The notes under the pieces were generated by a model, which was not told the origin of the DNA, searched no databases, and saw only the letters and a list, made by a program, of their open reading frames with translations. DNA of 64,000 nucleotides from Hordeum vulgare subsp. vulgare. Lineage: Eukaryota > Streptophyta > Magnoliopsida > Poales > Poaceae. Position 1 is the first letter of the stretch. Every line of letters starts with the position of its first letter. The stretch lies in NCBI RefSeq assembly GCF_904849725.1, contig NC_058518.1, positions 214,408,741-214,472,740 on the forward strand. Direction: 5' to 3'. Shown here piece after piece: positions 22,447 through 22,838 of the stretch. Position numbers and translations under genes: made by a program.

Positions 22447-22838
22447 TACATCGTGAGGGGCGGGCGGAACCTCTTCCCGCTGCTCCCGGAGGCCTTCAAG
22501 GGTGTCAAGTAGATCGAGGTCATCGGATGGGGCTCACAGGTCCACTCTCCACCTTCCCCTTTGCCTCCCCTCCTCTCTCTCTCTCGAGATTTACCATGAC
22601 TGTCTACTCCACTGCTACTTGAGACTGTGCTTGGATGAAGACATCAGTCGATGCGGTCAAACGGAGCGACCGATTTCACACAGATTTGTTCTGGTCTGCT
22701 GCTGTTTGGGTTCAAAGGAGTCTGCAGCCTGTGCGCTGGCTGTAACAGAGATTGCTCATGGTGCTTTTGCACGGTCCGGCGCAGGCCCAGAACCTGAGGG
22801 ATTCCTTGGTTGAAGCCAAGTCTGACATCGCCGTCAAG
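22447..22838 (+). pseudogene. Captured host-gene fragment: ketol-acid reductoisomerase exons
   Basis: Two exon pieces of plastid ketol-acid reductoisomerase (acetohydroxyacid isomeroreductase), the second common enzyme of branched-chain amino acid synthesis. Exon A (22447-22539) reads YIVRGGRNLFPLLPEAFKGV then K-stop-IEVIGWGSQ and ends at a GT donor. Exon B (22773-22838) reads GPAQAQNLRDSLVEAKSDIA then VK and ends at another GT. Joined they carry the NADPH-binding GWGSQGPAQAQNLRDS motif of this family. The stop at 22510-22512 is TAG where Gln (CAG) is expected, and the acceptor before exon B is AC instead of AG, so it is dead. Retention of an intron shows capture from genomic DNA, not mRNA. 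It lies beyond the CACTA subterminal repeats and before the chromovirus LTR, so capture by the CACTA is likely but not proved. Confidence 0.85.

What the first reader, a model, noticed from the sequence alone, without database searches (positions are those of the whole stretch)
22447..22838. Ketol-acid reductoisomerase exons captured inside or beside a CACTA transposon
Seen: two exon pieces (22447-22539 and 22773-22838) encode YIVRGGRNLFPLLPEAFKGV and GPAQAQNLRDSLVEAK, with a GT donor after each and 233 bases of intron between. Together they carry the GWGSQGPAQAQNLRDS nucleotide-binding motif specific to plant ketol-acid reductoisomerase. Established: CACTA elements in grasses capture host-gene fragments with introns. 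Inferred: the CACTA took it up, because subterminal repeats end only about 180 bases upstream. The AC acceptor and a TAG codon show it is non-coding. A transcript could still produce small RNAs matching the plastid amino-acid synthesis gene.
Basis: partly seen in the sequence, partly recalled or inferred. Interest (0 to 1): 0.85.

Follow-up and report, generated by a model that had tools for sequence, protein, structure and literature searches.

The report
Amino-acid enzyme gene piece inside transposon
A jumping DNA element in what looks like the barley genome took up a piece of the host gene for an amino-acid-making enzyme and carried it to many places; this kind of event is known, but here the donor gene, elements without the piece and elements with it can be compared in one genome.

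Summary
Window 22414-22994 is a decayed, intron-bearing piece of the host ketol-acid reductoisomerase (KARI) gene, 95.4% identical to a gene at C1:505.78 Mb. It lies inside a CACTA element. The window copy has only the left end (16969); an LTR retrotransposon starts at 22997. Seventeen other 93-96% copies exist besides the gene. One (L023+L032) has both ends, TGA on each side and KARI inside. Four of six fetched KARI-less relatives resume where the KARI piece ends in L013; there donor and recipient share TAAAT. This suggests a repair patch copied from the gene. Private mutations are as frequent in exons as in introns (30/2563 against 63/5915 cells), so the piece looks like a neutral passenger. 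The TAG codon and the lost exon-2 acceptor are private to the window copy. CACTA gene capture is documented in wheat (PMC4290129), so this is a new member of a known kind. Small-RNA effects were not testable.

The parts
16969..22996 (+). Truncated CACTA (En/Spm, DTC) element: left end to the retrotransposon junction
   Evidence: Element sequence shared with 16 of 17 other KARI-bearing copies; left end shared with L017, L018, L023
16969..16986 (+). Left terminal sequence CACTACTAGGAAAAGGGC
   Evidence: matching right end CCTAGTAGTG seen in L023+L032
17009..17437 (.). Left subterminal array of GGCGCACC/GGTGCGCC repeats
   Evidence: 14 partly overlapping hits at 17009-17430
17784..21619 (+). TNP2-type transposase region, broken into several frames: Transpos_assoc, Transposase_21, DUF4218, and a DUF4216 hit below cut-off
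   Evidence: Transposase_21 E 6e-73
18567..18890 (+). 162-bp tandem duplication inside the transposase region; the 11 other copies that span it align as a single copy
22238..22259 (.). Internal GGCGCACC/GGTGCGCC pair, not the end of the element
   Evidence: in L013+L030 the right end lies about 7.8 kb right of the point that matches window 22994
22267..22416 (+). G+C-rich segment, possibly a piece of another host gene (unidentified), present in KARI-bearing and KARI-less copies
22414..22418 (.). Junction of a deletion of about 175 bp relative to L013-L015
22414..22994 (+). Captured KARI fragment (end of intron 1, exon 2, intron 2, exon 3, part of intron 3)
   Evidence: 95.4% to host gene L012; alignment
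22447..22539 (+). KARI exon 2 with lost acceptor (TG) and a TAG codon
22540..22772 (+). KARI intron 2, 233 bp (232 in the gene)
22773..22838 (+). KARI exon 3 with lost acceptor (AC)
22997..36116 (.). LTR retrotransposon cutting the CACTA off; LTR copies 22997-25718 and 32971-36116, the right copy ending against another repeat
   Evidence: LTR K2P 0.047

Best explanation
The piece is a transduplicated fragment of the host KARI gene inside a family of CACTA DNA transposons (about 0.95 on its own). Most likely a break or gap inside an ancestral element, right of the transposase region, was repaired by copying about 760 bp from the KARI gene on C1; the copy was closed on the right through a 5-base TAAAT match, and transposition then spread it to at least 18 places (this mechanism about 0.6). 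Shown: donor, element membership, copy number, KARI-less relatives, junction sequences. Inferred: that repair copying made the patch, the direction of change, and that the retrotransposon came later. The fragment then decayed as a neutral passenger. The window copy also suffered a ~175-bp deletion, two lost acceptors, a stop and the loss or displacement of its right half.
For: Donor gene with open exons and no exact CACTA end or GGCGCACC repeat in the 9.9 kb held. L013 shares 759 bp with the gene at 97.2%. Complete element L023+L032 with perfect 10-bp ends and TGA on both sides. Right end also seen in L013+L030. KARI-less L042, L043, L044, L046 share the left part and resume at L013r 5285, where donor and recipient share TAAAT. 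Gene-to-copy divergence (group means 0.043-0.057) is about equal to copy-to-copy divergence (group means 0.031-0.054), fitting one capture followed by a burst. Private changes: exons 30/2563, introns 63/5915 cells. The right junction of the third class carries a 10-base copy of nearby KARI exon 3, reached by 9 of 2000 shuffles, though its last 3 bases also match the neighbouring insert.
Against: The left junction has about one unmatched base and no clear shared bases. The left junction of the second class shows no significant templated filler (733 of 2000 shuffles). Polarity rests on the coincidence of breakpoints, not on an outgroup genome. L013 lacks its left end, and L023 lacks most of the transposase region. 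The KARI tree is weakly supported, places the gene among class-1 copies, puts L026 (class 3) with L014 (class 1) and L022 (class 3) next to class 2, so more than one capture or later gene conversion is not excluded.
Confidence: 0.9

Rival explanations
1. Pack-CACTA tandem-excision model: two neighbouring elements flanking part of KARI lost their facing ends and fused, enclosing the gene piece.
For: This is the mechanism proposed for Arabidopsis Pack-CACTAs, as summarised in review PMC13317346 (section 7).
Against: L013 keeps long internal sequence on both sides of KARI; relative to KARI-less L042 only about 307 bp is replaced. Two independent terminal deletions would have to stop at almost the same internal point. 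No CACTA end was found at the donor locus in the 9.9 kb held.
Confidence: 0.1
2. The piece belongs to a second element (Helitron, MULE) nested in the CACTA, or is an unrelated pseudogene that the CACTA landed beside.
For: Nested insertions are common in this window.
Against: In L013 KARI joins sequence shared with KARI-less elements directly on the right and with about one extra base on the left; 16 of 17 other copies carry the same upstream element sequence; introns are kept, so it is not a retrocopy.
Confidence: 0.03
3. The captured exons have a function: a chimeric coding exon, or a source of small RNAs acting on the KARI gene.
For: L013 keeps both acceptors, both donors and an open frame; perfect 21-mers to these two exons remain, union 114 of 139. 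Wheat chromosome 3B has transcribed CACTA-captured genes (PMC4290129, passages), and a review reports captured sequences acting as siRNA reservoirs in maize (PMC13317346, passages).
Against: Exon and intron private mutation rates are equal and pooled dN/dS is about 0.8. Stops in 3 of 18 copies, exon-3 acceptor lost in 3 of 18, a donor lost in 1, a one-base gap in exon 3 in 2, exon 2 truncated in 14 of 18.
Confidence: 0.1

Closest known systems
CACTA-captured genes of bread wheat chromosome 3B (PMC4290129; abstract and passages seen)
   Same: Triticeae CACTA elements enclosing host gene fragments, some multi-copy, most of them gene fragments
   Different: Those were detected as genes between two elements of one family with duplications checked; here donor, KARI-less relatives and junctions are compared base by base, and no purifying selection is seen
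Pack-CACTA elements of Arabidopsis and rice (Catoni et al. 2019; the paper itself is not held; seen only through review PMC13317346)
   Same: CACTA ends around host gene pieces
   Different: Here the gene piece is an internal patch in an element family many copies of which still align over the transposase region and long right-hand sequence
Double-strand-break repair with filler DNA (SDSA) moving genes in wheat (PMC3445842; passages seen)
   Same: A gene-bearing sequence copied as filler at a break
   Different: There the patch lies at a TE insertion site; here inside a transposon that then amplified it

Membership tests
CACTA (En/Spm) DNA transposon | CACTA...TAGTG terminal inverted repeats | tested here: met
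   Window left end; both ends in L023+L032
CACTA (En/Spm) DNA transposon | 3-bp target site duplication | tested here: met
   TGA on both sides of L023+L032, one copy tested; not testable on the window copy, which lacks its right end here
CACTA (En/Spm) DNA transposon | TNP2 transposase | tested here: met
   Transposase_21, E 6e-73, in the window; reading frame broken
CACTA (En/Spm) DNA transposon | Subterminal repeat arrays at both ends | tested here: met
   Window left 17009-17430; L013+L030 right 12611-12930
Captured host gene (transduplication) | Identifiable host donor gene elsewhere in the genome | tested here: met
   L012, C1:505.775-505.785 Mb
Captured host gene (transduplication) | Fragment lies between the two ends of one element | tested here: met
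   L023+L032: ends at 2120 and 12767, KARI at 4802-5183
Captured host gene (transduplication) | Transcription or small RNAs | not testable with these tools
   No expression data available
Functional KARI gene or exon | Intact splice sites and reading frame in the window copy | tested here: not met
   TG and AC acceptors, TAG codon

The most novel reading that the evidence does not exclude
One genome holds the donor gene, the KARI-less element and the KARI-bearing element, showing that a CACTA can take up an unlinked gene by a templated repair patch inside an otherwise near-complete element. The interval right of the transposase appears to be a swap site: different lineages carry KARI, a PTPLA-type gene piece, or other inserts there.
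Probability: 0.5. Interest if true: 0.55.

Novelty: new member of a known kind. Interest (0 to 1): 0.36.

Why it matters
A 2026 review (PMC13317346, section 7) says an undiscovered mechanism may exist by which DNA transposons take up fragments of unlinked genes. This family gives a donor and likely before and after states with readable junctions in one genome, so models of capture can be tested. For KARI itself, the family is a possible source of matching small RNAs and of misannotated KARI-like gene fragments.

Tried and rejected
'Beside the CACTA' was rejected by the complete copy. 'Retrocopy' was rejected because intron 2 is kept. 'Other Rossmann-fold family' was rejected: the 35 PDB sequences up to E=1 are all KARI. 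Selection on the captured exons was tested and not found. Significant templated filler at the class-2 left junction was not found. The right half of the window's own element was looked for with the L013 and L022 right-hand sequences against the whole window and only the KARI piece matched; DNA beyond the window was not read. Of 8 peptides put to Pfam (7 frames from the right-hand part of the L013 element and the PTPLA-like peptide), 6 gave no family. The donor of the class-3 insert was not identified; its best non-member relatives are 86-88%, one of which (L045) was read. The G+C-rich segment 22267-22416 was not identified: its DNA search scored 40 of 298 candidates, and no protein search was made with it. 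Paper searches: KARI + transposon + captured (7 papers, none on this by title and start of abstract), acetohydroxyacid isomeroreductase + CACTA (none), KARI + CACTA (2 papers, on blackcurrant and pitaya); the general CACTA-capture searches showed none on KARI by title and start of abstract. Only these searches stand behind the statement that I found no print record of a KARI capture by a CACTA.

Full report
Where it is. The window lies in an unnamed 4.21-Gb genome, C1:214408741-214472740.

Check of the observation. Exons 22447-22539 and 22773-22838, with a GT after each and 233 bp between, are as described. The peptide matches rice KARI 3fr7 at E 2.9e-26, and the 35 PDB sequences found up to E=1 are all KARI; Pfam gives KARI_N above its cut-off. 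The homology to the host gene extends from 22414 to 22994 at 95.4%.

Donor. Pfam KARI_C has one match in the genome, C1:505779420-505779560, and KARI_N has two, the same gene and C2:633397815. L012 (reverse strand) holds open exons of a KARI gene from its N-terminal part to the C-terminal words searched for (exon joining by eye). The exact 18-base CACTA ends and GGCGCACC/GGTGCGCC are absent from its 9.9 kb.

Copy number. A 401-bp query within the fragment gave 27 matches, all 27 candidates scored. They are the window, the donor, 17 other copies at 93-96% (one apparently split into two rows by an insertion, C3:582699163 and C3:582708416) and seven diverged matches at 65-83%.

Element. Of the 17 copies, 16 carry the window's upstream element sequence; the 17th, L021, is the split one. 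The left end CACTACTAGGAAAAGGGC is at 16969 in the window and is seen in L017, L018 and L023. A right end is at 12985 of L013+L030. L023+L032 runs from CACTACTAGG at 2120 to CCTAGTAGTG at 12767 (10,648 bp) with TGA on both sides and KARI at 4802-5183. It lacks most of the transposase region; many other KARI copies align over that region, but I ran Pfam on the window only. There the domains Transpos_assoc, Transposase_21 and DUF4218 lie in broken frames, with a DUF4216 hit below cut-off.

Three classes. The window and L013-L015 keep the longest left part of KARI; L016-L021 start at window 22463 (L021 is cut by its insertion); L022-L029 also start at 22463 and stop at 22845, followed by a different insert. 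The window copy has in addition lost about 175 bp at 22414-22418 and meets an LTR retrotransposon at 22997. The right half of the element is not found elsewhere in the window.

Before and after. Six KARI-less copies were fetched (L033, L034, L042, L043, L044, L046). Four of six (L042, L043, L044, L046) resume at L013r 5285; L033 and L034 resume further right. On the left, L042 runs with L013 to 4526, while L043, L044, L046 and L033 leave at 4465-4479 and L034 at about 4503. L043 enters a PTPLA-type gene piece there. KARI fills 4531-5289. The right junction shares TAAAT between donor and recipient; the left shows about one extra base. The KARI-less copies part from L013 on the right exactly at the KARI junction, which favours KARI as the newcomer; this is inference.

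Decay and age. Private changes are 30/2563 exon cells and 63/5915 intron cells; pooled dN/dS is about 0.8. The exon-3 acceptor is lost in 3 of 18 copies (window, L016, L018), stops occur in 3 of 18 (window, L017, L025), a donor is lost in L019, one-base gaps lie in exon 3 of L014 and L026, and the exon-2 acceptor is lost in the window only, of the four copies that still have that place. L013 keeps all four splice sites and an open frame. Mean K2P of the gene to class-1 copies is 0.043; class means among copies are 0.031-0.054. With a recalled rate of 1.3e-8 per site per year that is very roughly 1-2 million years. The LTRs of the retrotransposon differ by 0.047, so it is not measurably younger. 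The KARI tree is weakly supported, places the gene among class-1 copies and mixes some copies of different classes, so more than one event or gene conversion is not excluded.

Known context. Wheat 3B has 140 CACTA capture events; 19 captured genes (13%) were expressed with dN/dS under 0.4 (PMC4290129, abstract and passages). A review describes the tandem-excision model and says another mechanism may exist (PMC13317346, passages and section 7). SDSA filler at TE insertions is described in PMC3445842 (passages). The present case is a new member of a known kind; the before-and-after junctions are its main value.

Noticed in passing
L035, L036, L037, L039, L040 (C3:596979233, C5:411886933, C2:212916768, C6:514980730, C7:362433393): A second, older KARI-bearing repeat: five copies 86-94% alike including upstream flank beyond the gene match, mostly 70-73% to the KARI gene over about 1 kb (L039 in shorter pieces at 79-81%). 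In the flanks read (both sides of L036, right side of L035) the only CACTACT motifs lay inside the KARI-like stretch. The carrier is unidentified.
   Followed up: partly
L043:1-2451 (reverse strand; C2:619901050-619903500): KARI-less copies of the same CACTA family carry a two-exon PTPLA-type gene piece (3-hydroxyacyl-CoA dehydratase by recall) at nearly the same place; Pfam E 3.2e-15 for the joined peptide.
   Followed up: partly
L022:3734-4730 (reverse strand): Class-3 copies carry a ~1-kb insert right of KARI with 86-88% relatives on C5 and C2, and a 10-base copy of nearby KARI exon 3 at the junction.
   Followed up: partly
L030:1569-1829 (reverse strand): Frame in the right-hand part of the element with a ribonuclease H1 N-terminal (Cauli_VI) domain, E 6.4e-17.
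   Followed up: no
window 18567-18890: A 162-bp tandem duplication in the transposase region; the 11 other copies that span it align as a single copy.
   Followed up: no
window 22997-51900: Repeats that look like nested LTR retrotransposons: pairs 22997-25718/32971-36116 and 43285-45096/50089-51900, and a 425-bp tandem duplication at 34154-34999.
   Followed up: no
L011 (C2:633397815): Second KARI_N match, 30.3 bits with a 151-aa open frame, not found by the KARI DNA query nor by tblastn with the host KARI protein; it may be another Rossmann-fold protein.
   Followed up: partly
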